DNA from: Paraphaeosphaeria minitans
Taxonomy: Eukaryota; Ascomycota; Dothideomycetes; Pleosporales; Didymosphaeriaceae
Assembly (NCBI GenBank): GCA_015832175.1
Contig: WJXW01000009.1
Location: forward strand, 1,364,001-1,428,000
Reading direction: 5' to 3'
Length of the DNA stretch: 64,000 nt
The stretch's first letter is position 1. The number at the start of each line of letters is the position of its first letter. Below are positions 1,408 through 64,000 of the stretch, one piece after another. The notes under the pieces were generated by a model. That model saw only the letters and a program-made list of their open reading frames with translations. It ran no database searches and was not told where the DNA came from. A program made the translations under genes and the position numbers.

Positions 1408-1798
1408 TAGCGTAGTATAATATTATTCTTACCTAAGATAGTAATAGCACTAAATTAACGTAGAACTCTAGTAGGAAATCCTTAAAAGCGCTTTATATTA
1501 TAGAAGATAAACAAGGACCTAAAGGAATCTTATTAACTACTAAATTATTAGCCTTATAAGATTTTGTCTTCTTAATATTTTTCTCCTTAAGTGCTATTAT
1601 ATTCTTAGTACACTTATCTAATAAATCTATTTACTAACATAACTAATCTTTATACGTATGTATACGACGTAATTTCTCTAACACCTCTTTATAGGCCTTA
1701 AACGCAACCTCCTATGTTTCCCTTAACTTTTTCATTTACGCACGTAACGTCTCCTTCTCTATAAGTAACTACTTAAACTTACACTCTAAAACGCGTAT

Positions 1799-2033
1799 TA
1801 TAGTGTAAAGGTTGGCCTACGATAGAGAATCGGAGAAACATAGGGCCAATTAGCTGTTGTTTAAGATAGCTAATTAGGGAACAGACAAAGAAGGAGAGCG
1901 CGAACTAGACAAGACACAAAAAGACCTAATAGACAATTAGAGTAGTTAGATTTGTATAATAGATTTTAGATAGGATAACTTAACTTATTCTTTTATATTC
2001 CTTACTTAAGGCAAACGCACCTATAACACTATA
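1799..2033 (+). repeat. 5' LTR of element C
   Basis: Same length (235 bp) and sequence as 7215-7449, apart mostly from C/T and G/A differences. It starts tatagtgtaaagg and ends cactata, RIP-mutated forms of tgtagtg and caccaca. Left TSD gtat at 1795-1798. Confidence 0.82.
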
Positions 2034-7745: not shown

Positions 7746-8152
7746 TATTAAGATCTAAAGGCTAGGCCTCTTAGGATCTATATATATATTTACGTTTATT
7801 ATTCGAGTGGCACAGTATAAGGTTACATAACCTAATTAGTGTAATTAGAGTGCTAAAATAACTAATTAAACTAAGCACTTAATATACTAAGTAACTAATT
7901 AAGGCTTAATTAGTTTAATTAGAGTAATTAGTCCACTAATTAATTAAAGTATATAGGAACGCAAGTATAGACTTTCATACTTATATTTATTCTATTTATT
8001 AATCTATTATTTAGATTCTAGCAGACTATATTATTAACTCGTTACACTTTGTAAGATACTATTATATTAATAAAAACTTCCACCTTTGTAAGTACTCCTG
8101 CCTAAGAACTAACCTTAACCCTTTAGGATTAGCTACGCTCTTAGATTTAATA
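7746..8152 (+). repeat. 3' LTR of A-iii, variant U3
   Basis: 407 bp, starting tattaagatct after the purine tract aaggagggagataa (7732-7745) and ending tttaata. The last ~200 bp (tatataggaacgc to the end) match all other A LTRs, but the first ~200 bp are unrelated to the A-i type. They consist of ctaattag-rich AT repeats. The TATA-like agtatatagg marks the U3/R border. Confidence 0.75.
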
Positions 8153-8702
8153 GACTTTATCCTTATTTTCCTATTCTCGTCTAGAGAAGTAGAAGTATAG
8201 GTTAAGGTATAAGAGCTAAGTGTTAGTCTTAATATAGTTACTATTATATAGGTTAGGTTTTACTACCTTATTATAGGTATTACTAATTAGTGTAATCCTA
8301 TTAGCAGTAGCTAAAGTAGTTAAAGAAGTAGAAGTTTATATAGTACTTATATTAAAGGTGTTTAAGATATTAAATCTAAGAGCGTAGCTAGTCCTAAAGG
8401 GTTAAACTTAGTTCTTAAGCAGGAGTACTTATAAAAGTTAAAAGGTCTTATTAATATAATAGTATCTTGCGAAGTGTAATAAGTTAATAATATAGCCTAA
8501 GTGTAATCTAAATAATAGATTAATAAATACGTTAAACATAAGTATAAAGAGTCTATACTCGCGTTTCTATATACCAAGGTAATTAGTCTAACTAATTACA
8601 CTAATTAAGGTAATTAGACTATACTTAGTAATTAGTAATATAATTTACTTAGTTTACTTAGTGTGCTAAGGCCACTAATTACACTAATTAGGTTACGTAA
8701 CA
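8153..8702 (-). mobile_element. 5' end of reverse gypsy element A-iv
   Basis: On the minus strand it runs: LTR 8702-8368 (335 bp), then tcttaaacacc and the first ~215 bp of internal sequence (gag start, 8367-8153), then it stops at the A-iii LTR. The internal start resembles the A-inner 5' region (tcttaaacaccgttaacataagtac). It forms an inverted pair with the A-iii LTR around a 215 bp centre. The rest of the element is presumably left of the window. Confidence 0.68.
8368..8702 (-). repeat. 5' LTR of A-iv, another variant U3
   Basis: Minus strand starts tgttacgtaacctaattag and ends ttagatttaata. R-U5 is family A; U3 shares the taattag repeat style with the A-iii LTR, and only the first eight bases (tgttacgt) match the A-i type. 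Confidence 0.72.
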
Positions 8703-8749
8703 CTAACTGCGGCGCACGTACTGCTTTAGATAATAACTATATATGTGGT
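8703..8749. other. 47 bp spacer between two A elements
   Basis: The piece ctaactgcggcgcacgtact (8703-8722) and the bases after it belong to neither LTR. It is short, locally CpG-rich, and may be the only surviving older host DNA here. The last five bases, gtggt, would be the left TSD of the next element. Confidence 0.4.
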
Positions 8750-9112
8750 TATTATGAACCAGATAGCAATGTGGGAGTTAGGCGCTTATAAAGGTATAAT
8801 GAAGTAATAATAGGGTTATAGGCGTTATAAAGAGATGCTAAGAGGCTTAGATTAGATTACGTAATACGCTTAGCTACTTAGGAGCACTAAGTAGTAGAGT
8901 AGCCTTAGTATATAGGAATATAAGGATAGACCTTTATACTCGTGTTTAATCTGTTTATTAATCTATTATTTAGATTCTAGTAGACTAAATTATTAACTTA
9001 TTACACTTTGTAAAATACTATTATATTAATAAGACCTTCTACCTTCTATAAGTACTTCTGCCTAAGAACTAACCTTAATCCTTTAGGACTAGCTACCCTT
9101 TTAGATTTAACA
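8750..9112 (+). repeat. 5' LTR of forward A-i host
   Basis: 363 bp, tattatgaacc...ttagatttaaca. It matches the A-inner LTR except that it has one, not two, copies of the 48 bp U3 block containing the cttag/actaag motif. TATA-like tagtatatagg lies at about 8907. Confidence 0.8.
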
Positions 9113-9574
9113 TCTTAAACACCCTTAACATAAGTACTTTATAAACTCCTACCTCTTCTACAGCTTTAGGTGCCGCTAAGATTACTCCTATAAAGAATAG
9201 TAGTAAGGTGTATAAACCTTATTTCTACTTTAGCAATTAATTTTAAACTAACGTCTAGATTCTCTAGTTAGACCTCTATTTCTTTAACTTAGACAAATCT
9301 CTTAAAGATAAGAAAAAGGTTATTTTCGTAGTAATATATATGCGAGGAGGTATAGAATTATAGAATTATCCTTACCTTAAAAAGTGTCTAGGAATAGACT
9401 ATAATAATAATAATAACGATTACGTAAATAAGCACGCTAATACAATTAATATTATTAAGAATTATAATAACTTTAAGAAATGCCTTAAATAACTCTTTAG
9501 GATCGCTAATAAGGACTCTATTATAAAGGCAAAGATTTAGACTATAACTTAAAAGCGATTAGTAGCTAAGTATA

Positions 9575-10021: not shown

Positions 10022-10540
10022 ATGCCTACTAACTATAACTCTATAAAGCGTTGTTATAACTTTATCTTTACTATTAAAAACTATAAAGTAGTTATAGTGT
10101 TAAAGTGCTCCTTTTATAAGTTACACTCCTACGTTTGCAAAGTCTACGTTAGCTTAGGGAAGTGTAGTAAGTGTTAAAAATAAAACTTAAAGTGTAATGT
10201 AGCTATTACTAAGAATAAGTTCTTATAGTTAATTACTAAGAAGAAGAAGTTAGAGGCGCAAATATTAGAGGCGCGAAAAGAATAGGATATAGTATTTAAG
10301 GCCCTACGCGTAGCGTACGTAAAAGAGGATTAGTTAGTAAAATAGTTAGCGCAGAATAAGAAGCGTGCTAGCAAGGTTATTATAGTAGAGAGTGCTGCTC
10401 TAGCGAAGCTAGAGTTAGAGGAGGATCTAGCTTATTCTACTTAGCCTACTAGTTTAGCTAAACTTAGTATATCTATATAGTTAGTAATAGACAACCTGCC
10501 TCCTAAGTTCTAGGATAATTCTTTAGCATTACTGTCTTAG
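10022..10540 (+). pseudogene. Antisense Zn2Cys6-like/coiled-coil ORF of reverse A-i
   Basis: ATG 10022-10024 to TAG 10538-10540, 519 nt, exactly the same length as the copy at 58402-58920. It runs opposite to pol and starts about 37 bp inside the 3' LTR. Cys are kept at codons 29, 39, 48, 51 and 58; codon 32 is Tyr (TAT). With A-inner (Cys 29, 32, 48, 51, 58) this gives C-X2-C-X6-C-X8-C-X2-C-X6-C, the Gal4-type zinc cluster spacing. A Lys/Glu/Ala/Leu stretch (codons ~70-115, KKKKLEAQILEARKE) is a probable coiled coil. Several TAG/TAA codons replace Gln. Regulator function is inference; no product is known to me. Confidence 0.62.
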
Positions 10541-32197: not shown

Positions 32198-32202
32198 TAG
32201 CG

Positions 32203-41479: not shown

Positions 41480-44400
41480 TACTATAGTATCGCCTAATCT
41501 GCTTACTCCTACCATAACCACTCTAGTTAATACACGCTAAACTACACTTTAGTCCCTAATTTAACTCTTAAAGAAAGATCTCGCACTAAATAAAAGAGCT
41601 ATATAGAATAATGTTTAAGCTTTGTACCGTGCTTATCTTAAGAAGACTAAGCAGGTAAGACAAAGTCTTAAGACCTAGTTTAAAGAGTAGCAGCTTCTCT
41701 ATTAAAAAGCAAAAACCTACTTAATTAGCGAAATTAGTAGACTACTTACTACCTAAGATTTCCTAGATGCAATTGCCGCGCGTATAGCACTAGATTAGGC
41801 CTAATTAATAAACTAACAGCTAATCTAGGAAAAGACGCTAGGACGGAATTAGATTACGCTAGACAATCTGGGGAAGGTATTTTTGGCGCTTATCTAGGAG
41901 TATTTAATCTAATCTAGTTCTAATAAAATAAGTGGGGTATTCGCCACTTTTAATAGATTATTAAAACAATCTACTAACTCTAATAGTTCTAGTTCGTCTA
42001 ATTAGACAAAGAAACAACTAAACTGTCCCTATAAGCCCTATACTTATAGGTGGAAACTAATAGAGTGGTAAAGACTTTAAACCGCGATAGCTGGATTACC
42101 CTAGGATAGAATATTATTATTTAATCTTACTAATAAAGAAAAATTAGAGATTCTTAATTAACTTAAGTAGCCTAAGTGGTCAAACCTTCGTAATGTGATT
42201 ACAAAGGTAGGATAGAACAAGAAATAATCTTTTACTAAGACTATTAAGTATTCTAGTAGTATTACTGCTACTCTACTAAACCTATTTAATCTGCCTACAG
42301 ACAATAGAGAATCAGGTGTCTACTCTACTCTACATTCTAACGCTTATCCTCTATTAGAATGTACAATACTAGATAGTGCTATAGCAGTTCACCTAGTTAA
42401 CAATCACAAAAGACTTATTCCTAGAACGGTTTAATTATTAAATAAGAGTGTAGAGGTAGGTACATAAAGCCTCCTAATCTTAGGAATTAGTAATAGACTA
42501 ATTAAGAACGCTTTACATAGGAAAAATAGGAGATTTATAGAAAATCTACTGCTCTAAGGAGTGAAAGTAGTAGAAGGCTTTTATGTAAATATTATATTAG
42601 AAGCTCTTTTAAAGAAAGTAAAGATTTAGTACTTTAGTTTAGATTACACTCTTAGGATTAGAAGCCTAGAATAAAGCGTTGTTTTAGTAGACCTAAGATG
42701 TAAGTATAACTTTACTTTCCTATAATATAAGCTAATCCGCTCTTATCTAACTATTATAAGTGTGACTACTAAAGGATCATTCTAGGTTAATATTAAGAGA
42801 TTAGATTCTAAGGACCTTTAGCACCTTTAAGTAGGGTATATAGGAAGTAGAGCCCTATAAGCTCTAGTAACTGCAGCCTAAGGTGTAAAGATTACTAGAA
42901 TGTTAAGAAAGGATTGCGAGCACTATACTACTATACACGTAACTTAGGTAATTTTTAGGAGACCTAGAGATTAATTTTCTAGGCTATTTCACTTATTATC
43001 CTAGGATCTATTTAATATGCCTACTACTTAAAATAGAGAAAACTAGGTTTTGCTAATTAAAGAAGATTTTAGTAAGAAACCTTACGTTTTTAATCTTAGA
43101 ATAAAGACGCTTTTTAAGATAATAAAAGTCTAGTAGGATTTCTTAGCTCTTATTAATACAAAATACGAGCTTTAAATTAGAAAAATCTACTAGGATAATA
43201 ATACAGCAACACTTCTATAGAGAGGGAAATCCTAGTACGAATTCTAGGCTAATTAGGAAGAGATAATAATAAGCAGACTACTGCCCTATACGCATAAGCC
43301 TAATAGCGCTGTAGAAAGAGTAGGCTAGGAGCTTATAACAAAAGTAATTAAAATGTAAATAAGCGTAAATCTGCTATTAAATCTCTGGCCTAAGATTTTA
43401 TAACCGGCATGCTAGCTCTAAGGAATAATTCCTAGCCTAGTATTAGGCTATTAATCACCTAATAAAACGTTAGATGCTTAGTTTAGATAATATTTTTGTT
43501 ATTTTAAACTAGTAAAAACATAACATAGAACAGCTAATCTTTGTCTAAACTAGAGTGCTGTCTACGCCTATAGCTACTAAGCTTACCCTTTAGATTAGGA
43601 GCGTGCAGCTAGGCAAGATAGAAGAGAATTTAAAGTAAATCCTAAGGGCTATATTAGATACCTAGTAGGCTATAAAGCTTCTAATATTTACTAAATATAG
43701 ATTCCTTAGCTTAATTAGGTAATTACTATAAGAAACGTAAGGTTTAATAAGTCCTTATTCTATAAAGGATTAGAGGAATAATCTATTCTAAAGATAGAAG
43801 TATTAAAAATAGTAAAAAGCCTCTAAGAAAAAGAGCTAAATAATCTAGGAGAAGCGTATAAAAACGCGCTTAATATTCTTCCTAAAATAAACAAGTATAT
43901 AAGAACTACTACTAGACCTATAAGTAACTCTTAGGTAATTAAAAGCGAAGTAGGCTAGCTAAGTAATTAGGAACCTAAGGTACCTACTACTAAGCGAGCT
44001 ATAGGCTTAGCTAGCTAGTAGCTAAGAATTCGCTTAAGTAGGAAAGGAAGCATAGGACTTGTAACCCCTAATTAGACACTAGAGCTAGGTAATCTTAGGG
44101 GTAATCTATTAAGCAATTAAGAGATATCTAGCAGCCACTAGAACACTACTAGAAGAGCTAGCCTACTAGAATCTAGGGATTTAATACCCTATTTATTAGT
44201 AGAAACTAATTAGGTTACTAATTAACCTAGCGCAAATAACTTAATTACGCTAGACAAAGCAGATAACCTACTAGTGCGCTAAAGGCGAAGGCAGATCTAT
44301 CTAGAGGTAAGTAGAATAAGTAGGCGAAATTATAGTAAAGCACTAGAAATTAACTAACTAATAAATTGCTATCTGCTATTACGAAGATTAAGGAAGCAAA

Positions 44401-46205
44401 ATAATTAGGATAATTAGCTAGGGGGTAGGTAGAAGCTAGGTGCTTATGCACTAATTACTAATTATCTTTAAAGTGATCTTAATATAATATTAGAGTATAT
44501 ATTTATACTAGGAGTAGTAGAGGCCTAGTCTAAGTAAGAACAATATATTACACTAAATATAATAGTATTCGCTTCTATACTTAGAAAGGCGCCTAGAGCG
44601 TCTTATATAGCTTAGACTTACAGAGACGAGCTTACACTAGAGCCAACCTTATAGAAACACCTTTATAATTATCTATATAGGAAGCTATTCCTCCTTACTG
44701 CTTATAAGGAGATCTTGACTTTATAAGATAAAGGTACCTAGATAGAGATTAAATAATTAGAGGTGTTAGAGCAACTACTCCCTTTAAAGTGGGTCTTTAC
44801 CTATAAGTTTAATTAAATAGATACTTTAAAAAGTGTAAAGCTTAAATTGTTATAAGAGGAGATCTTTAGAAAAGGAATACTCTCTACTCTATCTATACTA
44901 CTACTCTAGTAGTAAGATCTTTTTAATTAGCTATAGCTCTGGCAGCAGAATTCGATCTAGAAATCTTATAATTTAATATAGTAGGAGCGTTTCTAAATGC
45001 TTTTATTACAGCCGCTAATCTAGTAACTTATAAATTACCTAATAGTTTTAAAAAGCTAGAAAAGTGTATAAGATTAAGCTAAGCTTTATATAGCTTAAGA
45101 GATTTACCACTTCTTTAGTATAAGGAATTTATAGGATTACTTTAATCTTATAGACTCTTAGCTTCGCTAGAAGAGCTATGCCTTTTCTTTAACAGTAATT
45201 AAAGTATTATTATTCTTTTTTATGTTAATAACATTCTTCTTCTCTATTATAAGAGTAAAGAGAAAGAAGCCCTAGATTTTTAGAAGAAGATTATAAACAA
45301 ATATAAAATTAAATTAAAAGGACTAGTAAAGTGGTTCCTAGGTATTTAAGTAATTAGGGACAGAGAAGCAAGAATAATTTCTCTAGTCTATAATACCTAT
45401 ATTAATAAGATTATAAAAAAGTTTAACCTTTTAAACTCTAGGAGCTTCCCTCCTATACCTCTATTAGCAGAAGATTTTGTTCTAAGCATAGGAGAAGCCA
45501 CTCCTTAAGAAATAAAGCTCTTTTAAGAAGAGGTAGGATTAGCTCTCTATATAGTAATTATACTACGCCTAGATATAGCCTTTGCAGTGTTAAAGCTATT
45601 ACACTTTCTAATAAATCTAAGCAAAGAACACTTTACTACTATTAACTATGTAATTCTTTACCTCTATTAAACTAGATAGTAGGCTATAGTCTTTAGTGGC
45701 TACAATAGACCTAATCTACTATCATGTAGAGATGCCTCTTTCGCTAATAATCTAATATTATAACAATCTTCCTATAGGTATATTATCCTATTGTTTAGAG
45801 GAGCTATCCTATAGAAAGTAGCTTACTAGAATATAATTACCACTTTAATAATAGGAGTAGAGCTTCTAGCGCTTAAGTATATAAGTAAAGAAGCTATAGC
45901 AATTAAGAGATTCTTTACTAAGCTTACTCTAGATCTAGGACCTTTATAGAAAGTCTATTATAATAATCTTTAAACTATTTGTTTAGTAATTAGAAAGAAT
46001 AAAAGAATTACTACTTAACTACGCTATATAGATATTTAGAATATATAGTTATAGTAAGAGCATATAAAAGAATTATTTTAAGTAGAATATCTTCTAACTA
46101 GCTAAATGCTAGTAGATAGCCTTACAAAGGCTTTTACTTATTAGCAGTTTAATAGATTTAAAAGGCTATTAAATCTATAAGATGTAAGTATAATAATTAT
46201 AGAAT
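41480..46205 (+). pseudogene. Gag-pol polyprotein of forward F (copia type)
   Basis: Gag region 41480-42700. Pre-integrase and integrase: HLQVGYIGSRALQALVTAAQ (about 42818-42880), CEHYTTIHVTQVI, FSRLFHLLSQDLFNMPTTQ (42980-43030) and ALQKEQARSLQQK (43305). RT: IEIKQLEVLEQLLPLKQVF (about 44740), FDIVGAFLN, then FYVNNILLLYY with YVNN at 45221-45232 (YVDD ancestor). RNase H: SCRDASFANN at 45719-45748 and LVDSLTKAF at about 46108-46134. This order is diagnostic of Ty1/copia. A basic KKRKKKRKKK-type tail run follows at 46270-46300, coded or just purine-rich. All readable domains are broken by TAG/TAA. Confidence 0.85.
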
Positions 46206-47399
46206 AAGAGTAGGTAAGTAGAGGATTAATCTATTAACTACCTAGAATTATTAATTTAGAGCTAGGAAATAAGAAAAGAAAAAAAAAAGAAAGAAAAAAT
46301 TAGAGGAAAAATAGGAATTAGAGAAAGAGGAGATAAAAGAGCTTATTTATAAGCTTATAAACTTTCTTCCTTTTCTACTTAATTATAGGGGTGTAAGAAT
46401 CTCCTTTATAATTAGTAGTAGGAGATTCTCCTTATTCTTCTCCTCTCCTCCTCTCTATAGTAGGTAATTCCTTACCCTATCTACCTCCTCTACTTCTCTT
46501 TTAATTAGTAGTAGGTAATAGCTTACCCTAGCCTCTACTCTACGTTAGAGCTAATAGGCTACTTATATAGCTATTTTAATTAGTATATTAGCTGCGACCG
46601 CGCTACTCCTTAATAAGTAGAGTAGAAGGGCAATTACCCTATCCTCTACTAAGAATTAGCTAAAAGGAAGAGAGTAGGACAGTAGCTACGTGCTAAGCTT
46701 ACTCCTCCTAACTACTAGTAGGAGGAGGAGATTATAAAGCCACCTTAACCCTTTTACGCAGCTTAGTAATTAGCCTTTTCTATAAAAAGTATTAGCTAAA
46801 CTTAAAAAGAATCTTAATATAAAAGCTTATATTAGCACCTTCTAATAGTTAATAGTAGATAAAATCTATAGCTAGAGTCTAAATATACAGCTAGCTATAG
46901 AAATAATTAGCAAAAATTAGCTAAAGTAATAGAATAATCCTATATATAGTAGTGTAAGAGTAGGTAAAATAGGTATAGTAGCGCCTACCTAAGCTTAAAG
47001 CGTTATTATAGTAGTATCTATTACTTTTTCCTATTAGAGCTCCTTTTAAGTAGCCTAAGTAGCTTACTTATCTAAGAGCACTAAGCTATTACTAGGGGCC
47101 TAGAGCTAGGGTAGGAGGAGCTAGTAGAGTAGGAGGAGTAGAAGGATCTTAGTAGAAAGATTAGAAGCTTTATTTAGCAGCTTTTACAGCCTTTACTAAA
47201 CGTGCTTTAGCTAGGTTATTAAATATCTAAAAAAGTTAGTAAAGTTCTAAATAATAGAAAGAGTATAAGGCAATAATTAGAGGAAGAGAACCTACTATAA
47301 AGTAGTAGGATTTAAAGGCTTAAACTAGTAGGCTTAAATTAGATAGAAAGTTAAAGCGTTAAAAGTAAAGAATTAAAGAAAGAAGATTAAGCGCTAGTA

Positions 47400-52175: not shown

Positions 52176-52784
52176 TCTTAAACACTCTTAATATAAGTAC
52201 TTTACAAACTTCTACCTCTTCTATAGCTTTAGGTGCTGCTAAGATTACTCCTATAAAGGATAGCAGTAAAGTGTATAAACCTAATCTCTACTTTAGTAAA
52301 TAATCTTAAACTAATGTCTAGATTCTCTAGTTAGACCTCTACTTCTTTAACTTAGACAAACCCCTTAAAGATAAAAAGAAGGTTATCTTTATAGCAATAT
52401 ACATACGAGGAGATATAGGATTATAGATCTATCTCTACTTTAAAAAGTACCTAGGAATAAACTATAACAATAACAATAACAACTACGTAGACAACTATAC
52501 TAATGTAGTTAATATTATTAAGAATTATAATAACTTTAAGAAATGCCTTAAACAACTCTTTAGAATCGCTAATAAGGACTCTATTGTAAAAGTAAAGATT
52601 TAGACTATAACTTAGAAATAATTAGTAGCTAAGTATATAGCTAAGTTTTGTAGATACGCTGTGTAGCTTAACTAGGATAATAAATCCCTTTAAGACATGT
52701 ATAAATAAGGACTTAAATAGAAACTATGTAAGGAACTCTTACGTAGTAGTGCGCGAATTACTAATCTTAAAGAACTATATAAAG

Positions 52785-53195
52785 TGTTACGTACCAGATA
52801 ACAACGTGGGACTCGGGCGCTTATGAAGGTGTAATAAAGCGACAACAGGGTTATGAACGTAACAAAGAGACGCTAAGCAACTTAGATTAGGTCACGTAAT
52901 GTGCTTAGTTGCTTAGCGGCACTAAGTAGCAGAGCTGGTCACGTGAAGTGCTTAGTTACTTAGTGGCACTAAGCAGCGGAGCAGCCTTAGTATATAGGAA
53001 CGCGAGGATGGGCTCTCTATACTTATGTTTAATCTATTTATTAATCTATTGTTTAGATTCTAGTAGACCAAATTGTTAACTCGTTACACTTCGCAAGATA
53101 CTATCGTATTAATAAGACCTTCCACCTCCTATAAGTACTCCTGCCTAAGAACCAACCTTAACCCTTTAGGACTAGCTACCCTCTTAGATTTAATA
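52785..53195 (+). repeat. 5' LTR of A-inner
   Basis: 411 bp. Two tandem ~48 bp U3 units (about 52890-52984) with cacgt palindromes and cttag/ctaag pairs; TATA-like tagtatatagg at 52989. Lightly mutated. Confidence 0.92.
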
Positions 53196-54960
53196 TCTTA
53201 AACACCGTTAACATAAGTACTTCACGAACTCCTACCTCTTCCACAGCTTTAGGTGCCGCCAAGATTACTCCTATAAAGGATAGCAGTAAGGCGCACAAAC
53301 CTAATCTCTACATTAGTAAACAATCTTAAACTAACGTCTAGATTCTCTAGTTAGACCTCTACTTCTTTAACTTAGACAAACCTTTTAAAGACAAAAAGAA
53401 GGTTATCTTCACAGCGATATACATGCGAGGAGATATAGGATTATAGATCTATCCCTACCTCAAAAAGTACCTAGGAATGGACCACAATAACAACGACAAC
53501 AATTACGCAAACAATAATACTAATATAGTTAATATTATTAAGGATTATAACAACTTTAAGAAATGCCTTAAATAACTCTTTAGGATCGCTAATAAGGACT
53601 CTATTGCAAAAGCAAAGATTTAGACTATAACTTAGAAACAATTAGTAGCTAAGTATACAGCTAAGTTTCGCAGATATACTATGCAACTTAACTGGGACGA
53701 TAAGTCTCTTTAGGATATATATAAACAAGGACTTAAATAGAAACTACGTAAGGAACTCCTATATAGTAGTGCGCGAATCACTAACCTTGAAGAACTATAT
53801 AAAGAAACTATTAGGATTAACAGAAAGTGGTTTTTATTGCAATAGGAGCTCCACTAAAACTCTAGGGCGATAAGCTTTAGATAACTAGTAAAAGTGGTTT
53901 ATAAGAACCCTGTTAGAATTGTCCAAAAGCAACAGCTAAGGAACTACTAGAGATACAAACTAATAGAAGATGTCTAGTTTAACTATATAGGCAAAGGGAA
54001 AGGAAGAAGGATGGGCCCTAAGCAGCCTAATAAACACGTTTCTAATAGAAGTTAACAACTAATAACTAAGACCCGTAAATGCTTTACATGTGGCAAACTA
54101 GGCTATATAGCTAGAAACTGTAGATTAAAGAACAAAGTCTATTAAACTAAGTTAAATGTACTAACCATTAAGGACCAAGAACCTAATAAGGAATAGGAAA
54201 TTATTATAACGCCATTTAGTTACTAACGCGTCACACTAGAATAAAGTGAGCGATTAGATTTACCTAACTTACAATTATACAAAGATCTAGAAGACAACTC
54301 TAACGTATACCACAACGTAGAAGACGTAGAAGAGATACCAAGATCTCCTACCCCTCACCCATAAAGTAGGCGGGAAGAAGACAACCCTATATTACCTAAG
54401 TATAAACTAAATGTTTAGGACTATATAGAACCCCACTAGGCACTAAAAGGGATACAACCCTACAAAAATAAGGAATTAGACTACGTACTAAAGTACTATC
54501 TAGACTACTAAAATCCTACACACTAATTCTATATGTGGACGCATTACGAAGAACCAATATGCGCACAACATAAGGCAGAAAAAGAGAAGAATAAAAAATA
54601 AACTAGAAGAAAACTGCGCTATAGATAGATATAGACAGACTACCCTATCGCAGCTTGCGACAAACACCTCTAGGATAAATAATAAGTAAAATACTTTCCT
54701 CATCTCACGCTAAAGGGTAATAAATACTATAATATACTTATTAACAGAGACTGCATGCAACTGTACTAGTATACATGTCTAAACTAAAACTGCAAATACC
54801 ACTACATAGCCAAACGTTTAGACAGCTTTATAAACTGCCCTATATAAGAAGCAATAATAGAACTACTAATTTAACTAGTACACAGGAACAGTGAAGACCG
54901 CAAGAGGAAAAACAGAAGAATATTCTTGCGGGAAGAAGAAGAAGACAATCTATATAAGCC
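53196..54960 (+). pseudogene. Gag of A-inner
   Basis: Starts after tcttaaacacc. Readable segments: DKPFKDKKKVIFTAIYMRGD (53385), LKKYLGMDHNNNDNN (53462), QLVAKYTAKFRRYTMQLNWD (about 53640-53697), a gypsy Gag capsid pattern. Zinc knuckle CFTCGKLGYIARNC at 54080-54121, CX2CX4HX4C with His changed to Tyr (CAC/CAT to TAT). The acidic/Pro-rich C-terminus follows. In-frame stops are TAG or TAA. Confidence 0.82.
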
Positions 54961-55009
54961 ACATACTTAAGAACAATGATAGAAGCAGATGCTTAGAAAC
55001 GCATACTAG

Positions 55010-58000
55010 GCATTAGAACTCAACTACAACCTACACGAACAGATGTCTTTTTTAGGCCTAAACTTAGATAAGAAAACGCCTTTATTAAATTAAATACTAT
55101 AGTAAGCACAGCATTAATTAAGCTACTAGTACAGCTTAAAGGAATATAGGCTTAAGCTCTTATAGACTTAGGAGTAGGAAAGAACTTTATATCTTATTAG
55201 ATAGTAAGACAAGCAGGACTTATAATGTTAGAGAAAGAAGTACCCTATATTATCTATATCGCGAATAGATCCCTAATGCCTAAGACACCTCAGATATACT
55301 AGGAGGTCACTACCACGATAACAGTCTAAGGACATAGAGAGGAACTTACCTTAGATATCTTACTAGGATCTAAGCATAAGTTAGTCTTAGGATTACTTTA
55401 GTTAATAATACACAACCTATAGATTAACTAGGGTACGAAGAAAATATCGTTTAAATGCTATAATTATGTATTATAAGCAAAGCCTACGCATTAACTAAAA
55501 ATAATAATAGATAAGGGAGTTATTAACAACATAATACCGCAATAGATAGTTAAAAAACAGAAGCACACCTTAGCAGACGCTAGCAGGAACTACTAGGTTA
55601 AAAAGCGCGAGAAAGAGGACAATAGCACACCCCTCACCTTACTAAGAGAGTACAGGAAATAGACATATATGTTTACAGAAAAAGAAGGAAAAGCAAACCT
55701 ACCAGAACATTAACCCTAGGATCTTACAATAGACCTAGAAGAAAGGAAGACGCCACCCTTTAGACTACTATACAGTAAGACAGGAGAAAAACTCCTTAAA
55801 GAATGTGATTTTATTAAGACAAACCTTAAGAAAGGATATATATAACTATTAAAGTTACTAGTAGTAAGCCCTTTTATATTTATTAAGAAAAAGGATAGAT
55901 TAGACAGACTATGCGTTAACTATTAACAACTTAACAACATAATAATAAAGAACTAATATCTACTACTAAACATTATAGAGTTACGAGATTAACTATCTCA
56001 AGCCAAGATATTCACAATAATAGATCTAAGAGACGGTTACTACCTTATACAAATTAAGAAAGGTAAAGAATAGAAAACAGCGTTTTAATTACGCTATAGA
56101 CTATTTAAATATAAGGTTATACTATTTAAACTCACAAATACACTAGCAGCTTTTATAGTACTTCTTAACAACGTACTCTATAAACATCTAGATATATTTA
56201 TTATTGCATATATAGACAATATCCTCGTCTTTTCTAAAAGCGAATTAGACTACACTAAGCATGTATAGATAGTACTAGAAGCACTAGACAAAGTATACCT
56301 TTATATTAAACTTAAGAAATGTAAGTTTAACGTTAAATAACTTAAATTCCTAGAACACATTATTACTACAGAAGGAATTAAGATGGCACTAAGTAAAGTC
56401 AAATGTATTAAGAACTAGCTAATACTAAAGATAGCTAAGAACATCTAAGAATTCTTAGAATTCTATAGATTTAACTAACAATTTATCTAAAATTACGTAA
56501 AGGTCATAATACCTTTAACAAATCTTACAAAGAAAGACGTACCCTTAGAATAGATAGATAAGTGCAGAATATCATTCTAACTCCTTAAGACAGTATATAT
56601 TATAGAACCTATCCTTATTTATTTTAGAAGCAATAAACCACTACGCTTTAAAACAGACGCTAGCGATCTTGCGCTAGGCGCCTACGCTAAATAAGAACGT
56701 AACAGTAAATAGTACCTAATTACCTATTACTCATACAAATTTAATAACGCTAAAACACAATATAACGTACATAATAAAGAACTCTACGCTATTATTAAAG
56801 CCTTAAAGCATTAGAGGATTTACGCGCTTAGTTACTTAACACTAGAAATCTACACAGATCACAAGAACCTTCTAAGGTTCACAACGACAAAAGAACTTAC
56901 GCCACAATAACAAAGATAGTTGTAAACTACTAGGCAGTACAAGTTTAAAATCATCTATATAGCTAGAAAAGAAAATGGCAGAGCAGATGCTCTTAGCCAA
57001 TAAAGTAATCTAGTAAGAGAAAAAGTAAAAACCTTCTCCGCAATCCTTCGCAAAGCTAAAGATAGATCTCTAGAGCTAATAGTAGAACTAAATTAACTTT
57101 TAGTAATTAACTAAGAAGTTCTAGAATATCTATAGACTAAGATTATCTAACAATACCACAATAACCCTATGTACGGACACCTAGGCATCACAAAAATAAT
57201 AGAACTTATCTAGAGGAATTACACCTTTAAAGAAATTAAAGCAGCTGTAATAACTTATTTCTGCAAATGTGTAGAATACTAGAGAAATAAACACAGCACA
57301 TATCTTAAATATAGAGAGATGTAAGTAATTAGAATACTAACAGCACTATAGGAAGACATCGCTATAGATTTTGTTATAGGAATTCTAAACTCTAAGGATC
57401 TAACAACAGGAATTAAATACGACAGTATACTAGTATTAGTCTACCAACTAACTAAGTATGTTGAGCTCATTCTATATCTTAAAAGAATAATAGCAAAGGA
57501 ACTCGCTTTTCTTATCCTGGACTAACTAATTAGACACTACAGAATCCCAAAAATAATTATTAGCGATAGAGACAAGCTCTTCACGTTAAATTATTAGACA
57601 ACGCTTATAGCACTACTTAGAACAAAACAAAAGCTATTAACAGCTTACTATCCATAAACAGACAGATAGACAGAACGTACGAACTAAACTATAGAAACGT
57701 ACCTACGCATCTACTGTAATAGTTAGAAGAATAACTAGGTTTTATTACTACCTATAGCATAGTTAGCCTATAATAATAAAGTATTAGCAGCATTAGGACA
57801 TACACTGTTCTATGCAAACTATAGAAGACACCCACATCTCTTTAATTAACAATTTCCTACAATAATTAAAGCAAAAGAAGCCATAGATATAGCAAAAAAC
57901 ATAAAGAAAATACACTAATAACTCTAAGAAAATCTCAAAAAAGCTTAGCAGCAATTAATTTTATACTAAAACTAAAAACGAAAAATGGCACCTTAGCTAA

Positions 58001-58390
58001 AGAAGGGGGATAAAATATATCTACTTATAAAGAACCTTTAAACTTAGAAGAAGAAACATAAGAAACTAGATTACATTAAGGTTAGACTATTTTATATTTC
58101 TGAGTAAATATCACTAGTGAACTATAAGTTGGAACTACCGCCAGATGCAAAGATACACCTGGTATTCCACGTATCACTACTGGAACTAGTAGACCCTGAT
58201 ACACTAGTTAAAACCACCTTCTACTACCAGACTAAGGAAGAAAACAAATTTAAGGTTAAAAGAATTCTGGAATACAATTAGCATAACAACGCGTACCTTG
58301 TTAAGTGGAAAGGTTACTTACACAGCAAAAACACTTAGGAACTAAAGGACTACCTAGAAAACTGTTAATAAAAGATTAAAGAATTCTATT
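55010..58390 (+). pseudogene. Pol of A-inner (protease, RT, RNase H, integrase, chromodomain)
   Basis: One frame throughout. Protease LIDLGVGKNFIS at 55159-55194 (D-S-G with Ser to Leu). RT: TIIDLRDGYYLIQIKKGKE about 56018-56074, YIDN at 56209-56220. RNase H: KTDASDLALGAYA about 56653-56691, NKELYAIIKALKH, YTDHKNL (56852). Integrase: HLGITK (57178), FCKCVEY (57261), IDFVIG (57364), ISDRDKLF (57558), TERTN (57670). C-terminal chromodomain 58265-58365 with YLVKWKGYLHSKNT, where Trp is intact. Motifs are those of Ty3/gypsy chromoviruses. Confidence 0.92.
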
Positions 58391-58401
58391 AACAGACTTA
58401 T

Positions 58402-58920
58402 TTAAGACAGTAACGCTAAGGAATTGTCCTAGAACTCTAGAGGCAGGTCGTCTATTGCAGACTATATAAACGTGCTAAGTTCAGCTAGACTAGTAGGCTA
58501 AGTGGGATAGGCTAGGTCCTTCTCTAACTCTAACTCTATTAGCGCAGCACTCTCTACCGCGATAACCTCGCTAGCACGCTTTTTATTCTACGCTAATTGT
58601 TTTAATAACTAATCCTCTTTTGTGCGTGCTACGTGTAGGGCTTTAAACGCTGCGTCCTATTCTTTTTACGCCTCTAACATTTGCGCCTCTAATTTCTTCT
58701 TCTTAGCGATTAACCGTGAGAACTTATTCCTAGTAACAGCTATATTACACTTTAAGTCTTGTTTCTAACACTTACTACACTTCCCTAAGCTAATATAGAC
58801 TTTGTAAACGCAGGAATACGACTTACAGAAGGAGCACTTTAATACTATAACTACTCTGTAGTTTTTAATAGTAGAGATAAGGCCGTAACAACGCTTTATG
58901 GAATTACAGTTAGCAGGCAT
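58402..58920 (-). pseudogene. Antisense Zn2Cys6-like/coiled-coil ORF of A-inner
   Basis: ATG 58920-58918 to TAA 58404-58402, 519 nt (172 codons plus stop), starting 37 bp from the 3' LTR and converging on pol, whose end is only ~12 bp away. Cys at codons 29, 32, 37, 48, 51 and 58; codon 39 is TAC (Tyr), where the copy at 10022 keeps TGC. Pooled spacing is C-X2-C-X6-C-X8-C-X2-C-X6-C. A Lys-rich link leads to KKKKLEAQMLEA and FKALHVARTKEDQLLKQL (about codons 72-112), a predicted coiled coil, then an acidic, Pro-containing C-terminus ending LALLS. About seven internal TAA/TAG. The layout resembles Gal4-type regulators, but no function is shown. Confidence 0.65.
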
Positions 58921-58957
58921 AATTCTTTAGAACAAAGAATAAGAAGGGAGGGGATAA

Positions 58958-59368
58958 TGTTACGTACTAGATAATAACGTGGGACTTAGGCGCTTATAAA
59001 GGTGTAATAAAGCGATAATAGGGTTACAAACGTAACAAAGAGACGCTAAGTAACTTAGATTAGGTTATGTAATGTGCTTAGTTGCTTAGTGGCACTAAGC
59101 AGTAGAGCTAGTTACGTGAAGTGCTTAGTTGCTTAGTGGCACTAAGCAGCGGAGCAGCCTTAGTATATAGGAACGCAAGAATGGGCTCTCTATACTTATG
59201 TTTAATCTATTTATTAATCTATTGTTTAGATTCTAGCAGACCAAATTGTTAACTCGTTACACTTTGCAAGATACTATTATATTAATAAGACCTTCTACCT
59301 CCCGTAAGTACTCCTGCCTAAGAACCAACCTTAACCCTTTAGGACTAGCTACCCTCTTGGATTTAACA
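58958..59368 (+). repeat. 3' LTR of A-inner
   Basis: 411 bp, tgttacgtactag...ttggatttaaca, followed by TSD taaag (59369-59373). More transitions than the 5' LTR (gataat for gacaac, taaagg for tgaagg). Confidence 0.92.
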
Positions 59369-60639
59369 TAAAGAAACTATTAGGATTAACAAAGAGTGGT
59401 TTTTACTGTAATAGGAGCTCTACTAAAACCCTAGGGCAATAAGCTTTAGATAACCAGTAAAAGTAGTTTATAAGAACCCTATTAGAATTGTCTAAAAGTA
59501 ATAGCTAAGGAACTACTAGAAATACAAACTAATAGAAGATGTCTAGTTTAACTACTTAGGCAAAGGAAAAGGAGAAAGAATAGGCCCTAAGCAGCCTAAC
59601 AAACGCGTCTCTAATAGAAGTTAATAATTAATAACTAAGACCTATAAATGCTTTATATGTAGTAAACTAGGCCATATAGCCAGAACTATAGATTAAAGAA
59701 TAAAGTCTATTAAACTAAGTTAAATGTACTAACTATTAAGGACTAAGAACCTAATAAGGAATAGGAAGTTATTATAACGCTATTTAGTCACTAACGTATT
59801 ACACTAGAGTAAAGTAAGTAATTAGATTTACCTAACTCACAACTATATAAAGATCCAGAAGACAACTCTAATATATACCATAATGTAGAAGACGTAGAAG
59901 AGATACTAAGATCTCCTACTCCTTACCTATAAAGTAGGCAGGAAGAAGACAACCCTATATCACCTAAGTACAAACTAAATATTTAGGACTATATAGAACC
60001 CTACTAGGCACTAAAAGGAATGCAACCCTATAAAAATAAGAAGTTAGACTACGTACTAAAGTACTACTTAGACTACTAAAATCCTACACACTAATTCTAT
60101 ATGTAGACGCATTGCGAAGAACTAACATACACATAATATAAAGCAGAGAAAGAGGAGAATAAGAAATAACCTAGAAAGAAACTACGCTATAGATAAATAT
60201 AAACAGACTACTTTATTACAGCTTACGACAAACACCTCTAGAATAAATAATAAGTAAAATACTTTCCTCACCTTACGCTAAAGGGTAATAAATACTATAA
60301 TATGCTTATTAATAGAGACTATATATAACTGTACTAGTACACGTGTCTAAACTAAGACTATAAATACTACTATATAGCTAAATATTTAGATGGCTTTGCA
60401 AACTGCCCTATATAAAAAGTAATAATAGAACTACTAATTTAACTAGTACATAGGAACAGTAAAGACTATAGGAGGAAAAACAGAAGAACATCCTTGTAGG
60501 AAGAAGAAGAAGATAATCTACACAAGCCATATACTTAAGAATAATAATAGAAGCAGATGCTTAGAAACGTATACTAGGCACTAGAACTTAACTATAACCT
60601 ACATAAATAGATGTCTTTTTTAGGCCTAAACTTAGATAA

Positions 60640-63600
60640 GAAAATACCTTTATTAAATTAAATACTATAGTAAGCATAGTATTAGTTAAACTACTAGTAT
60701 AGCTTAAAGGAATATAGGCTTAAGCTCTTATAGACTTAGAAGTAGAAAAGAACTTTATATCTTATTAGACAGTAAGATAAGCAGGACTTATAATATTAGA
60801 GAAAGAAGTACCCTACATTGTTTATATTGTAAATAGATCTCTAATGCCTAAGACACCTTAAATATACTAGGAGGTCACTACTATAATAATAGTCTAAGGA
60901 CATAGAGAGGAACTTACCTTAGATATCTTACTAGGATCTAAGCATAAGTTAGTTGTAGGATTACCTTAGTTAACAATACACAACCCGCAGATTAACTAAG
61001 GTATAAAGAAAATATTGTTTAAACGCTATAATTATGTATTATAAGTAAAGCCTATATATTAACTAAAAATAATAGTAGATAAGAGAGTTATTAACAACAT
61101 AATACTATAATAGATAGTTAAAAAATAGAAGTACACCTTAGTAGACGCTAGTAGGAACTACTAGGTTAAGAAGCGTAAGAAGGAGGATAATAGCACACCC
61201 TTTACCTTACTAAGAGAGTATAGGAAATAGACACATATATTTACAGAAAAGGAAGGAAAAGCAAACCTACTAGAACATTAACCCTAGGATCTTACAATAG
61301 ACCTAGAAGAAGGGAAAACGCCACCCTTTAGACTACTATACAGCAAAATAGGAGAAGAACTCCTTAAAGAACGTAATTTTATTAAGATAAACCTTAAGAA
61401 AGGATATATACAACTATTAAAGTTACTAGCAGTAAGCCCTTTTATATTTGTTAAGAAAAAGGATGAATTAGACAGACTATACGTTAACTACTAACAACTT
61501 AACAACATAACAATAAAGAACTAATATCTACTACTAAACATTACAGAGCTACGAGATTAACTATCTTAAGCCAAGATATTTATAACAATAGATCTAAGAG
61601 ACAGTTAGCACCTTATATAAATTAAGAAAGGTAAAGAATAGAAAACAGCGTTTTAATTACGCTATAGACTATTTAAGTATAAGGTTATACTATTTAGACT
61701 TACAAATGCACTAGCAGCTTTTATAGCACTTATTAACAACGTACTCTGTAAATATCTAGACATATTTATTATTGCGTATATAGACAATATCCTTGTCTTT
61801 TCTAAAAATAAATTAGACCACACTAAGTATGTACAGATAGTACTAGAAACACTAGATAAAGTATACCTTTACATTAAACTTAAGAAATACAAGTTTAACG
61901 TTAAATAACTTAAATTCCTAGAACATATTATTACTATAGAAGGAATTAAGATAGCACTAAGTAAAGTTAAATATATTAAGAACTAGCTAATACTAAAGAC
62001 AGCTAAGAATATCTAAAAATTCTTAGAATTCTATAGATTTAATTAACAATTTATCTAAAATTACGTAAAGGTTATAATACCTTTAATAAATCTTGTAAAG
62101 AAGGACGTACCCTTTAAATAGACAAATAAGTGTAAAATATTATTCTAACTCCTTAAAACAGCGTGTATTATAGAACTTATCCTTATTTATTTTAAAAGCA
62201 ATAAACTACTACGCTTTAAAACAGACGCTAGCGATCTTACGCTAGGCGCCTACGCTAAATAAAAATATAACAGTAAATAGCACCTAATTACCTATTACTT
62301 ATGCAAATTTAATAACGCTAAAACATAATACAATATATATAATAAAGAACTCTACGCTATTATTAAAGCCTTAAAGTACTAGAGGATTTATACGCTTAGT
62401 TACTTAATACTAGAAATCTATATAGATTATAAGAACCTTCTAAGGTTCACAATAACAAAAGAACTTACGCTATAATAACAAAGATAGTTACAAACTAAAG
62501 GGTAGTATAAGTTTAAAATTATCTATGTAGCTAGGAAAGAAAATAGCAGAGCAGACGCTCTTAGCTAACAAAGTAATCTAGTAGGAGAAAAGGTAAAAAC
62601 CTTCTCTATAATTCTTCGCAAAGCTAAAGATAGATCTCTATAGCTAATAGCGGAACTAAATTAACTTTTAGTAATTAACTAAGAAGTTCTAGAACATCTA
62701 TAAACTAAGATTATCTAATAATACCACGATAACCCTATGTACAGACACCTAGGCATTATAAAGACAATAGAACTTATCTAAAAGAATTACACCTTTAAAG
62801 GAATTAAGGAAGCTATAATAACTTATATCTACAAATATATAGAATGCTAAAGAAATAAACACAGTATATATCTTAAATATAGAGAGATGTAAGCAATTAA
62901 AATACTAACAGCACTATAGGAAGATATTACTAGAGATTTTGTTATAGGAATTCTAAACTCTAAGGATCTAACAACAGGAATTAAATACGATAGTATACTA
63001 GTAGTAGTCTACTAACTAACTAAGTATATTAAGCTTATTCTATGCCTTAAAGAAATAACGGCAAAGGAACTCGCTTTTCTTATTCTAGACTAACTAATTA
63101 GACACTACAGAATCCTAAAAATAATTATTAGCAATAGAGACAAGCTCTTTATATTAAATTATTAGACAACGCTTATAGCACTGCTTAGAACGAAACAAAA
63201 ACTATTAATAGCTTACTATCTATAAATAGACGGACAGATAGAATGTACGAACTAAACTATAGAAACGTACCTACGCATCTACTGTAATAGTTAGAAGAAT
63301 AACTAGGTTTTATTACTACTTATAGCACAGTTAGCCTATAATAACAAAGTATCAGCAGTATTAGAATATACACTATTCTATATAAACTATAGAAGACACC
63401 TACATCTCTTTAATTAATAATTTCCTACGATAATTAAAGTAAAAGAAGCTATAGATATAGTAGAAAATATAAAGAAAATACACTAATAACTCTAAGAAAA
63501 TCTTAAGAAAGCTTAGCAGCAATTAATTTTATACTAAAATTAAAAACAAAAAATGGCACCTTAGCTAAAGAAGGGGGATAAAGCATATCTACTTACAAAG

Positions 63601-64000
63601 AACCTTTAAACTTAGAAGAAAAAACATAAGAAACTAAATTATATTAAGGTTAGACTATTTTACATTTCTAAGCAAATATTACTAGTAAACTATAAGTTAG
63701 AACTACCGCTAGATGTAAAGATACACCTAGTATTCTACGTATTACTACTAGAACTAGCAGACCCTAATACACTAGTTGAAACTACCTTCTACTACTAGAC
63801 TAAGGAAGAAAATAAATTTAAGGTTAAAAGAATTCTAGAATACAATTAGTATAATAATATGTACCTTATTAAGTAGACAGGTTACCTATATAGTAAAAAC
63901 ACCTAGGAACTAAAAAACAATCTAGGAAACTGTTAGCAAAAGATTAAGGAATTCTACTAGAAATAACTAGGACGCACCTAGGAATTACCACTAGTATAAG
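60640..64000 (+). pseudogene. Pol of A-outer, to window end
   Basis: Same frame and domains as A-inner pol: protease LIDLEVEKNFIS (about 60729), RT with YIDN at 61778-61789, RNase H KTDASDLTLGAYA (about 62219), integrase 62750-63260 with ISNRDKLF where Asp is Asn, chromodomain 63860-63960. In the chromodomain LIK*TGYLYSKNT has lost Trp and other residues. More stops than A-inner. The antisense ORF and the 3' LTR would follow outside the window. Confidence 0.85.

What the first reader, a model, noticed from the sequence alone, without database searches (positions are those of the whole stretch)
58402..58920. Antisense gene in family A retrotransposons with a Gal4-type zinc-cluster signature
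Seen: a 172-codon minus-strand ORF between the chromodomain and the 3' LTR, opposite to pol. It recurs in reverse A-i (10022-10540, identical 519 nt length) and, diverged, in A-iii (182 codons plus stop), always with ATG close to the 3' LTR and the same stop after a Leu-rich end. Cys lost as Tyr in one copy are kept in another; pooled, they give C-X2-C-X6-C-X8-C-X2-C-X6-C, within the fungal Zn(II)2Cys6 range, followed by a likely coiled coil as in many such regulators. Known: extra, sometimes antisense, ORFs at this place occur in plant Tat-lineage gypsy elements. Inference: this element carries its own putative DNA-binding regulator, expressed from an antisense promoter in the 3' LTR. I do not know of a description of this in fungi.
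Basis: partly seen in the sequence, partly recalled or inferred. Interest (0 to 1): 0.92.

Follow-up and report, generated by a model that had tools for sequence, protein, structure and literature searches.

The report
Swappable antisense regulator in fungal retrotransposons
Jumping elements in a fungus carry, on the strand opposite their other genes, a small gene for a probable DNA-binding protein, and this gene seems to be traded between elements together with the neighbouring promoter, as if it were a plug-in control module.

Summary
The gene is real but decayed here: 58402-58920(-) has 9 stops, A-i has 10, and A-iii is split by a nested element. All 21 copies have 8-12 stops (RIP-like). 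An open copy in the same genome (most likely Paraphaeosphaeria minitans) is antisense, tail to tail with pol, and holds all six cysteines. RIP-immune transversions fall 6:1:24 on codon positions 1:2:3, so the antisense frame was selected. Of 150 homologues held, 140 keep C-X2-C-X6-C-X8-C-X2-C-X6-C, and their coiled-coil lengths differ by whole heptads. Pfam Zn_clus membership is not met. An antisense gene at this place in fungi was published in 2011 (brtn).

What appears new is a cassette. One gag-pol lineage carries at least five, probably six, types (A-F) of antisense gene plus U3, while gag and most of pol differ by under 1% transversions. Of 12 loci picked by pol alone, 11 show a clear antisense relative and one a weak one. 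Type D sits nearly unchanged on two different pol lineages.

Best reading: a dimeric DNA-binding regulator that travels with its own promoter. Expression, binding and direction of control are untested.

Novelty: an antisense gene at this place is published for fungi (brtn in Boty of Botrytis cinerea, also named for Sclerotinia sclerotiorum; seen as passages in PMC7264820 and PMC8365987).

Missed: the gene and its U3 are exchanged as a cassette between elements with the same gag-pol, and in one case between different pol lineages.

The parts
52785..59368 (+). Ty3/Gypsy chromodomain element (cassette type B) that carries the finding; 5-bp target site duplication TAAAG on both sides (52780-52784 and 59369-59373)
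   Evidence: flanks read; gag and pol by tblastn
52785..53195 (+). 5' LTR
   Evidence: boundaries read; repeats
53246..55090 (+). gag (RIP-damaged), 69% identical to the gag protein of the open copy L051
55225..58386 (+). pol with chromodomain at its end (RIP-damaged), 71% identical to the pol protein of L051
   Evidence: domains of the L051 pol
58402..58920 (-). antisense accessory gene, type B; 9 stop codons including the terminal one; five of the six cluster Cys kept
58958..59368 (+). 3' LTR; its U3 lies directly upstream of the antisense gene
59063..59156 (+). two tandem 47-bp U3 units (59063-59109, 59110-59156), each with an inverted repeat and an E-box-like stretch
   Evidence: palindromes of the L051 U3
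59164..59169 (+). TATATA, likely TATA box of the sense promoter, directly downstream of the tandem units
10022..10540 (+). antisense gene of the reversed copy A-i (type B), 10 stop codons
7475..7636 (-). N-terminal part of the antisense gene of copy A-iii (type C-like, P0012 E 3e-11)
1460..1813 (-). C-terminal part of the antisense gene of copy A-iii, cut off from its N-terminal part by an LTR-flanked element
7758..7899 (+). U3 of type C next to the A-iii gene (75% to the type C U3)
60793..63954 (+). pol of a third element; its antisense gene lies just beyond the window end (L092) and is of type D

Best explanation
A lineage of fungal Ty3/Gypsy chromodomain retrotransposons carries an accessory gene antisense to gag-pol, between pol and the 3' LTR. 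It encodes a protein of about 170-211 aa with a basic N-terminus, a six-cysteine cluster, a coiled coil and an acidic tail.

I think it is a dimeric DNA-binding regulator, transcribed leftward out of the 3' LTR, that acts on the U3 of its own element. There, repeated or palindromic units lie between the antisense start and the sense TATA box. Gene and U3 form one cassette that is exchanged between elements with otherwise near-identical gag-pol, and at times between lineages.

Shown here: the gene, its place, selection on its frame, cysteine spacing, heptad periodicity, palindromes in two U3 types, and cassette exchange. Inferred: zinc and DNA binding, dimerisation, an antisense promoter, U3 as the target, activation or repression.
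For: Open copy L051: gag, pol and antisense gene all open; pol stop and antisense stop overlap; the gene product equals PMIN01_12119. In 44 of 45 distinct gene copies the aligned end of pol lies 3-37 nt away on the opposite strand (56 of 57 rows with duplicates). Transversion columns 6:1:24 against controls.

Six Cys at the exact spacing in 140 of 150 homologues, relaxed in 142. Cys6 to conserved Arg-Leu: 132 of 133 measurable proteins agree modulo 7.

Cassette, seven full elements: gag at most 16/1881 transversions, pol 1-2800 at most 0.7%. Antisense gene within a type 0-4 per 510-618; A-B 27-29/510, A-C 103/497, B-C 109-112/503. R-U5 at most 1%.

Twelve loci picked by pol: types A 1, B 3, C 3, D 3, E 1, F 1. 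Type D gene 1-2/561 and U3 1-2/230 between L081 and three others, although L081 pol differs from L051 by 46/500 and theirs by at most 2/500 where measured.

U3 type matches the N-terminal gene marker in 35 of 35 A/B copies compared. U3 palindromes exceed Markov samples (2 and 0 of 300 reach the observed score).
Against: Zn_clus cut-off not reached. The family lacks the Pro that all 20 host domains show before the fourth Cys (read by eye). No structure prediction was possible. No expression or binding data. Gene and U3 are neighbours, so joint exchange could be mere linkage. The TATA-like stretch on the antisense side of RIPed copies is absent from L051, so no antisense promoter element is shown. 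Type F is only weakly like the family (E 0.014 with the family profile among 36 frames; none with the type D protein). The A-C codon-position count is weaker, 50:36:27.
Confidence: 0.6

Rival explanations
1. The antisense gene makes a selected nucleic-acid-binding protein, but it does not act on the element's own promoter. It may steer integration, package RNA, or regulate host genes.
For: Selection on the frame and the cluster plus coiled coil do not name a target. Pol ends in a chromodomain, so targeting is a theme of this lineage.
Against: The gene travels with U3 rather than with integrase or gag, and two U3 types hold palindromes suited to a dimer.
Confidence: 0.22
2. The joint exchange of gene and U3 is only linkage. 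Ectopic recombination or gene conversion keeps gag-pol uniform, and the 3' end stays diverged because it is too different to recombine.
For: Gene and U3 are adjacent. Crapaud in Podospora shows diverged U3 over a shared interior and 7 of 150 full copies with unlike LTRs (PMC10787394, passages and one section). L051 itself has a type C 5' U3 and a type A 3' end. L028 and L047 recombined inside the gene.
Against: Five or six deeply diverged cassettes persist in one lineage, and in every type looked at the place holds an antisense gene-like frame. In both mosaics the cluster half stays with its U3.
Confidence: 0.28
3. The antisense RNA, not the protein, is what matters (dsRNA or silencing), and the reading frame is incidental.
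For: Antisense transcripts of LTR elements are proposed to act this way (PMC7264820, passages).
Against: Third-position bias of transversions, indels in multiples of three, and 290 proteins at E <= 0.001.
Confidence: 0.03
4. It is a host Zn2Cys6 gene captured once, with no role in the element.
For: The genome holds many such genes (at least 144 matches), and a source names three relatives Zn(2)-C6 fungal-type.
Against: A gene-like antisense frame in 12 of 12 loci picked by pol alone, selection on the frame, relatives in several fungi.
Confidence: 0.03

Closest known systems
brtn, antisense gene of Boty-like Gypsy elements (Botrytis cinerea; also named for Sclerotinia sclerotiorum), Zhao et al. 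2011 Virology 417:248
   Same: Fungal Gypsy element, additional gene antisense to gag-pol between pol and the 3' LTR; pol with chromodomain (PMC4227169, PMC7264820, PMC8365987, passages only)
   Different: I could not read the 2011 paper or get the BRTN sequence, so homology, metal cluster and cassette exchange are untested for brtn
Antisense ORFs of plant Tat/Retand elements (Grande gene23, RIRE2, Retand TRP28)
   Same: Antisense gene between pol and 3' LTR, predicted DNA binding, proposed regulatory role (PMC11963269 and PMC7264820, passages)
   Different: Different protein domain (TRP28) and a longer region; 'zinc' occurs 0 times in either text
crapaud LTR element of Podospora
   Same: U3 split into diverged subfamilies while R-U5 and interior are shared; some copies with unlike LTR ends; RIP (PMC10787394)
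   Different: Its figure legend shows only gag and pol ORFs, and 'antisense' occurs 0 times in the text
Zn(II)2Cys6 (Gal4-type) regulators
   Same: Six-Cys spacing within range, coiled-coil-like stretch after the cluster, acidic tail; type D aligns in register with PF00172 but below the cut-off
   Different: No transposon protein reaches the PF00172 cut-off; A-C-type profile no better than the best Cys-kept control; lacks the Pro before Cys4 seen in host domains
HBZ of HTLV-1 (passage in PMC11963269, and recall)
   Same: Antisense gene of an LTR element with a nuclear regulatory product
   Different: bZIP protein by recall; no evolutionary link suggested

Membership tests
Zn(II)2Cys6 fungal-type DNA-binding domain | Six Cys at C-X2-C-X6-C-X5-12-C-X2-C-X6-8-C (range recalled) | tested here: met
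   exact X2-X6-X8-X2-X6 in 140 of 150 proteins, relaxed pattern (X5-13 in the middle gap) in 142 of 150; type D has X2-X6-X8-X2-X7
Zn(II)2Cys6 fungal-type DNA-binding domain | Score above the Pfam PF00172 cut-off of 21 bits | tested here: not met
   only 1 of 6 intact relatives listed Zn_clus at E <= 10, with 10.9 bits; 2 of 27 members at E <= 1, best 0.17; the open locus C15:1230229 is not among 144 genome matches, 150 of 239 candidates scored; type D open protein 14.9 bits, E 0.029, in register
Zn(II)2Cys6 fungal-type DNA-binding domain | Profile similarity to known members beyond the cysteines | tested here: not met
   hhalign against 20 host domains: probability 14.9, score 16.2, aligned out of register; 1 of 10 Cys-kept permuted controls scored higher (17.1); above all 10 fully permuted controls (best 13.5)
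Zn(II)2Cys6 fungal-type DNA-binding domain | Pro shortly before the fourth Cys (20 of 20 in the host set) | tested here: not met
   host domains against the 27-member alignment, by eye
Zn(II)2Cys6 fungal-type DNA-binding domain | Coiled-coil dimerisation element after the cluster | tested here: met
   same heptad phase between Cys6 and the conserved Arg-Leu in 132 of 133 proteins; 17 of 150 not measurable; without the 5 at distance 18, where another Arg-Leu may have been hit, 127 of 128. Sequence periodicity only, no structure
Zn(II)2Cys6 fungal-type DNA-binding domain | Binds two Zn ions and specific DNA | not testable with these tools
brtn-type antisense gene of fungal Gypsy elements | Antisense to gag-pol, between pol and 3' LTR | tested here: met
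brtn-type antisense gene of fungal Gypsy elements | Sequence homology to BRTN | not testable with these tools
   BRTN sequence not available; paper not held; no Botrytis name among the 120 best hits listed of 154 or of 290
Ty3/Gypsy chromodomain element | gag with zinc knuckle; pol with RT, RNase H, integrase, chromodomain in that order; LTRs | tested here: met
   Pfam on L051 gag and pol (the integrase core rve at 28.1 bits is below its cut-off of 32.6, the integrase zinc domain is above); LTRs and 5-bp TSD of the window element

The most novel reading that the evidence does not exclude
The cassette is the retrotransposon counterpart of a phage immunity region. Each antisense protein represses, or sets the copy number of, elements with its own U3. 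A gag-pol lineage escapes the resident copies by taking up a foreign regulator-plus-U3 cassette, giving a set of heteroimmune families (A to F) on one gag-pol. L051, with a type C 5' U3 and a type A gene plus 3' U3, would be an exchange intermediate, and type D on two pol lineages a completed transfer.
Probability: 0.25. Interest if true: 0.93.

Novelty: new variant of a known kind. Interest (0 to 1): 0.8.

Why it matters
Antisense genes at this place have been known in plant and fungal LTR elements for over a decade, and the reviews I saw give them no known function. Here the same gag-pol is found with five or six interchangeable, deeply diverged pairs of antisense gene and promoter, and one pair also sits on another lineage. 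That ties the antisense protein to the promoter and makes a direct test possible: does each protein recognise only its own U3? It could also explain why U3 regions in fungal elements such as crapaud diversify while the rest stays uniform.

Tried and rejected
Pfam on the RIPed copies gave only chance-level matches. A PDB sequence-profile search gave, among the 60 listed of 71, no zinc-cluster protein; best E 0.023. Viral contigs held no relative (147 pattern matches, none confirmed), so no DNA from other species was obtained and a classical dN/dS was replaced by the transversion test. An antisense TATA box in RIPed U3 was dropped, because L051 does not have it. Rfam found nothing in L051 at gathering threshold. 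A Blumeria lncRNA paper (PMC10648671, passages) gave nothing on such a gene. Homology with BRTN could not be tested. I matched type C U3 hits with gene copies by coordinates only by eye, and give no count from that.

Limits: the 6:1:24 count is dominated by one split (15 against 30 copies), so sites rather than lineages are the replicates. The pol control is not significant by itself (2:3:7), since pol hardly differs. The 45 gene copies were found through the gene, so they say nothing about elements without it; one search was run for that (40 of 648 candidates scored, 12 loci read). The seven full elements were chosen by me. In the U3 comparison 35 of 45 copies were used: 9 lacked TATATAG at the standard distance and the window's own 58920 copy was left out by my script (one search shows its U3 at the same spacing). 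The first 57 rows include 12 duplicates. The A-C gene divergence is 113/501 in the alignment and 103/497 in that. The part of the L051 3' U3 tested for palindromes includes the edge of an insertion.

They brought cassette types D, E and F and raised my odds: best explanation 0.55 to 0.60, linkage rival 0.35 to 0.28, other-target rival 0.25 to 0.22, captured-gene rival 0.04 to 0.03, immunity reading 0.20 to 0.25, interest 0.72 to 0.80.

Full report
What the window shows. The stretch 58402-58920(-) lies between the end of pol and the 3' LTR of a Ty3/Gypsy element that I place at 52785-59368, with a 5-bp target site duplication TAAAG. As it stands it has 9 stop codons, and the second copy at 10022-10540(+) has 10. 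No ORF of 120 aa or more wholly inside the window was listed. The 21 copies have 8-12 stops each. Compared with the open copy L051, the window element has C changed to T at CpA in 511 of 847 places and at CpG in 356 of 714, against CpT 67 of 767 and CpC 34 of 633, both strands counted, which is RIP-like. The third copy, A-iii, is broken by an LTR-flanked element: its N-terminal part is near 7475-7636 and its C-terminal part near 1460-1813.

Which organism. The window lies on contig 9 of a 47.45-Mb genome. One locus on contig 15 encodes a protein identical to PMIN01_12119 of Paraphaeosphaeria minitans. The contig length given for that protein, 1,603,724, equals the length of contig 15. The genome is therefore most likely P. 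minitans, Pleosporales.

The open copy. L051 holds open gag (625 aa), open pol (1066 aa) and the antisense gene of 170 aa at 7727-8239(-). The stop codons of pol and of the antisense gene overlap tail to tail. G+C of the gene is 55% here against 39% and 33% in the two window copies. No sense-strand frame is open over the gene (2, 2 and 7 stops), nor the other two antisense frames (6 and 9). It was the only one of 150 scored matches without inner stops. The copy has no matching target site duplication by eye, and its 5' U3 is of another type than its 3' U3, so it is itself probably a recombinant. Its 3' LTR carries an insertion of about 1.1 kb.

The gene is selected as a protein. RIP makes only transitions, so transversions show other change. 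Over 45 distinct copies, columns with both purine and pyrimidine in at least two copies fall 6, 1 and 24 on antisense codon positions 1, 2 and 3 (p = 7e-7), and length differences are 0, 6 or 30 nt. U3 as non-coding control gives 3, 5, 4 (35 copies); the pol 3' end gives 2, 3, 7 (36 copies). In 44 of 45 distinct copies the aligned end of pol lies 3-37 nt from the aligned end of the gene, on the other strand; L044 has no pol match in its locus (56 of 57 rows with duplicates).

The protein family. Three searches gave 6 hits (E <= 0.01), 154 hits (E <= 0.01) and 290 hits (E <= 0.001), the last two with capped candidates and 120 rows listed. The fungi named in the lists are P. minitans, Sporormia fimetaria, Elsinoe australis, Aureobasidium melanogenum and a MAG named Bathelium mastoideum, all Dothideomycetes by recall except P. 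minitans, looked up. Sources call three of the proteins Zn(2)-C6 fungal-type. Whether the unnamed relatives lie antisense in elements was not tested. Of 150 sequences held, 140 have exactly C-X2-C-X6-C-X8-C-X2-C-X6-C and 142 fit the wider pattern. The distance from the sixth Cys to the conserved Arg-Leu is 18 (5 proteins), 46 (30), 53 (93), 60 (3), 64 (1) or 67 (1). All but one agree modulo 7, as expected of a coiled coil that tolerates only whole heptads; the five at 18 may be another Arg-Leu. The stretch before the cluster is basic (+3 or +4) and the last 50 residues acidic (-6 to -9) in the three proteins measured.

Is it a Zn2Cys6 protein? Spacing says it could be. Pfam PF00172 says no at its cut-off. 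A profile comparison with 20 host domains gives probability 14.9, aligned out of register; one of ten controls that keep only the cysteines scored higher, all ten fully permuted controls lower. The type D protein matches PF00172 in register at 14.9 bits, still under the cut-off of 21. I therefore do not file it as a member, though a very diverged membership is possible.

The U3. In 35 of the 44 copies given, TATATAG ends exactly 250 nt from the antisense ATG. In the A and B copies printed that have this spacing it is preceded by two tandem 47-bp units; L019 and L044 have one. In L051 the two U3 types contain inverted repeats beyond what Markov-sampled sequences give (0 and 2 of 300 reach the observed score), and both contain CACGTG. 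Type A has repeated GCTCAG/CTGAGC, type C repeated TGATCA. The U3 thus lies between the sense TATA box and the start of the antisense gene, a natural place for a shared control site.

The cassette, types A to C. Groups A (15) and B (30) differ by 6.8% transversions in the gene and 3.8% in U3, but by 1.2% in the pol 3' end. A third type, C, is also present in many copies (150 matches scored of 363, which include A and B copies) and has a different U3. Seven full elements were compared (A: L051, L077; B: window 53k and 10k; C: L056, L078, L079). Over all 21 pairs gag differs by at most 16/1881, pol 1-2800 by at most 0.7% and pol 2801-3000 by 0/200; the last 200 nt of pol rise to as much as 6%. 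In the antisense gene, pairs of one type differ by 0/510 (A), 4/516 (B) and 0/618 (C, three pairs); A-B by 27-29/510, A-C by 103/497, B-C by 109-112/503. U3 follows the gene; R-U5 does not (at most 1%). The block that moves begins within the last 200 nt of pol and ends near the U3/R border. Counting A and B together against C, gene and 3' U3 agree in 7 of 7 and gene and 5' U3 in 6 of 7; the exception is L051. Among 35 A and B copies compared, U3 type matches an N-terminal gene marker in 35, while L028 and L047 switch from B to A within the gene.

The cassette, an unbiased look. Because those copies had been found through the gene, I searched with a piece of pol alone (40 of 648 candidates scored, 12 loci read). 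The 12 loci carry type A (1, L080, which is L051 itself), B (3), C (3), and three further types: D in L081, L086 and L090, E in L085, F in L087. D has an open gene of 186 aa in L081, with C-X2-C-X6-C-X8-C-X2-C-X7-C, and is a remote relative of the family (hhalign 97.7%, E 2e-12). E is a relative of D in its antisense frame (E 3e-14), with several cluster positions read as Tyr; F is only weakly like the family (E 0.014 among 36 frames). The third element of the window also ends in a type D gene, just beyond the window (L092). Apart from L080, ten of the other eleven loci belong to the pol lineage of L051: at most 3/700 and 3/500 transversions in two stretches; L081 is the exception, with 46/500 in the second stretch. 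Yet its D gene differs from the D genes of L086, L090 and L092 by only 1-2/561 and its U3 by 1-2/230. So the D cassette sits on two pol lineages. Upstream of R-U5, E and F show no or only a short blastn match with the other types, while an R-U5 match follows in 11 of the 12 loci and L092; in L080 (L051) the insertion pushes it further away.

How it most likely works. An antisense transcript starting in U3 of the 3' LTR yields a small dimeric protein that binds repeated U3 sites and sets the activity of the sense promoter, and possibly of its own gene. Because protein and site must match, they are exchanged together. Expression, zinc, DNA binding and the direction of control are inferences. Linkage alone could also explain joint exchange, since the two are neighbours; I give that 0.28.

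What is known. The antisense gene brtn of Boty in Botrytis cinerea was published in 2011 and is named for Sclerotinia sclerotiorum too. I saw only citing passages (PMC8365987, PMC7264820, PMC4227169, PMC5987419); the paper itself is not held. In plants, Retand elements carry antisense ORFs with a TRP28 domain predicted to bind DNA (PMC11963269, passages). In Podospora, crapaud has U3 subfamilies over a shared interior (PMC10787394, passages and one section). My searches for a zinc cluster in an antisense retrotransposon gene, or for diverged U3 exchanged between elements, showed no report of a regulator-plus-U3 cassette in the listings I saw. No search named such a cassette outright, and most subscription papers are not in that library.

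Noticed in passing
window 1801-7445: An LTR-flanked element (229-nt repeats at 1801-2029 and 7217-7445, 94%) sits inside the antisense gene of copy A-iii; I could not confirm a target site duplication.
   Followed up: partly
window 52193-52783 and 59367-60658: The type B element seems to have inserted into the gag of another element: gag residues 1-197 match on its left and 196-625 on its right. That outer element ends in a type D gene beyond the window (L092).
   Followed up: partly
L051 2141-2306 and 8277-9832: The open copy has unlike LTRs (5' U3 type C, 3' U3 type A) and no matching 5-bp duplication by eye, so it looks like a product of recombination between two elements.
   Followed up: yes
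L051 about 8331-9470: An insertion of about 1.1 kb in the 3' LTR begins with an ATTG repeat and is flanked by a short direct repeat.
   Followed up: no
L081 724-1284: A second open antisense gene (type D, 186 aa) on an element of another pol lineage, G+C 55%, next to an open pol end of 305 aa.
   Followed up: partly
window 52785-59368 against L051: RIP-like change hits CpG almost as often as CpA (0.50 and 0.60), while CpT and CpC are below 0.10.
   Followed up: partly
L051 2212-2219, 9530-9537 and 9577-9584: U3 types A and C share the palindrome TCACGTGA, a bHLH-type site by recall, which may be the binding site of a host factor.
   Followed up: no
window 27046-32200 and 41482-46636: Two inverted copies (93%) of another repeat family, over 5 kb each, flank a less A+T-rich stretch at about 32-39 kb.
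   Followed up: no
L087 and L085, downstream of pol: U3 types E and F also look repetitive by eye (F with an ACAGAG motif several times) upstream of TATATAGG; not tested.
   Followed up: no
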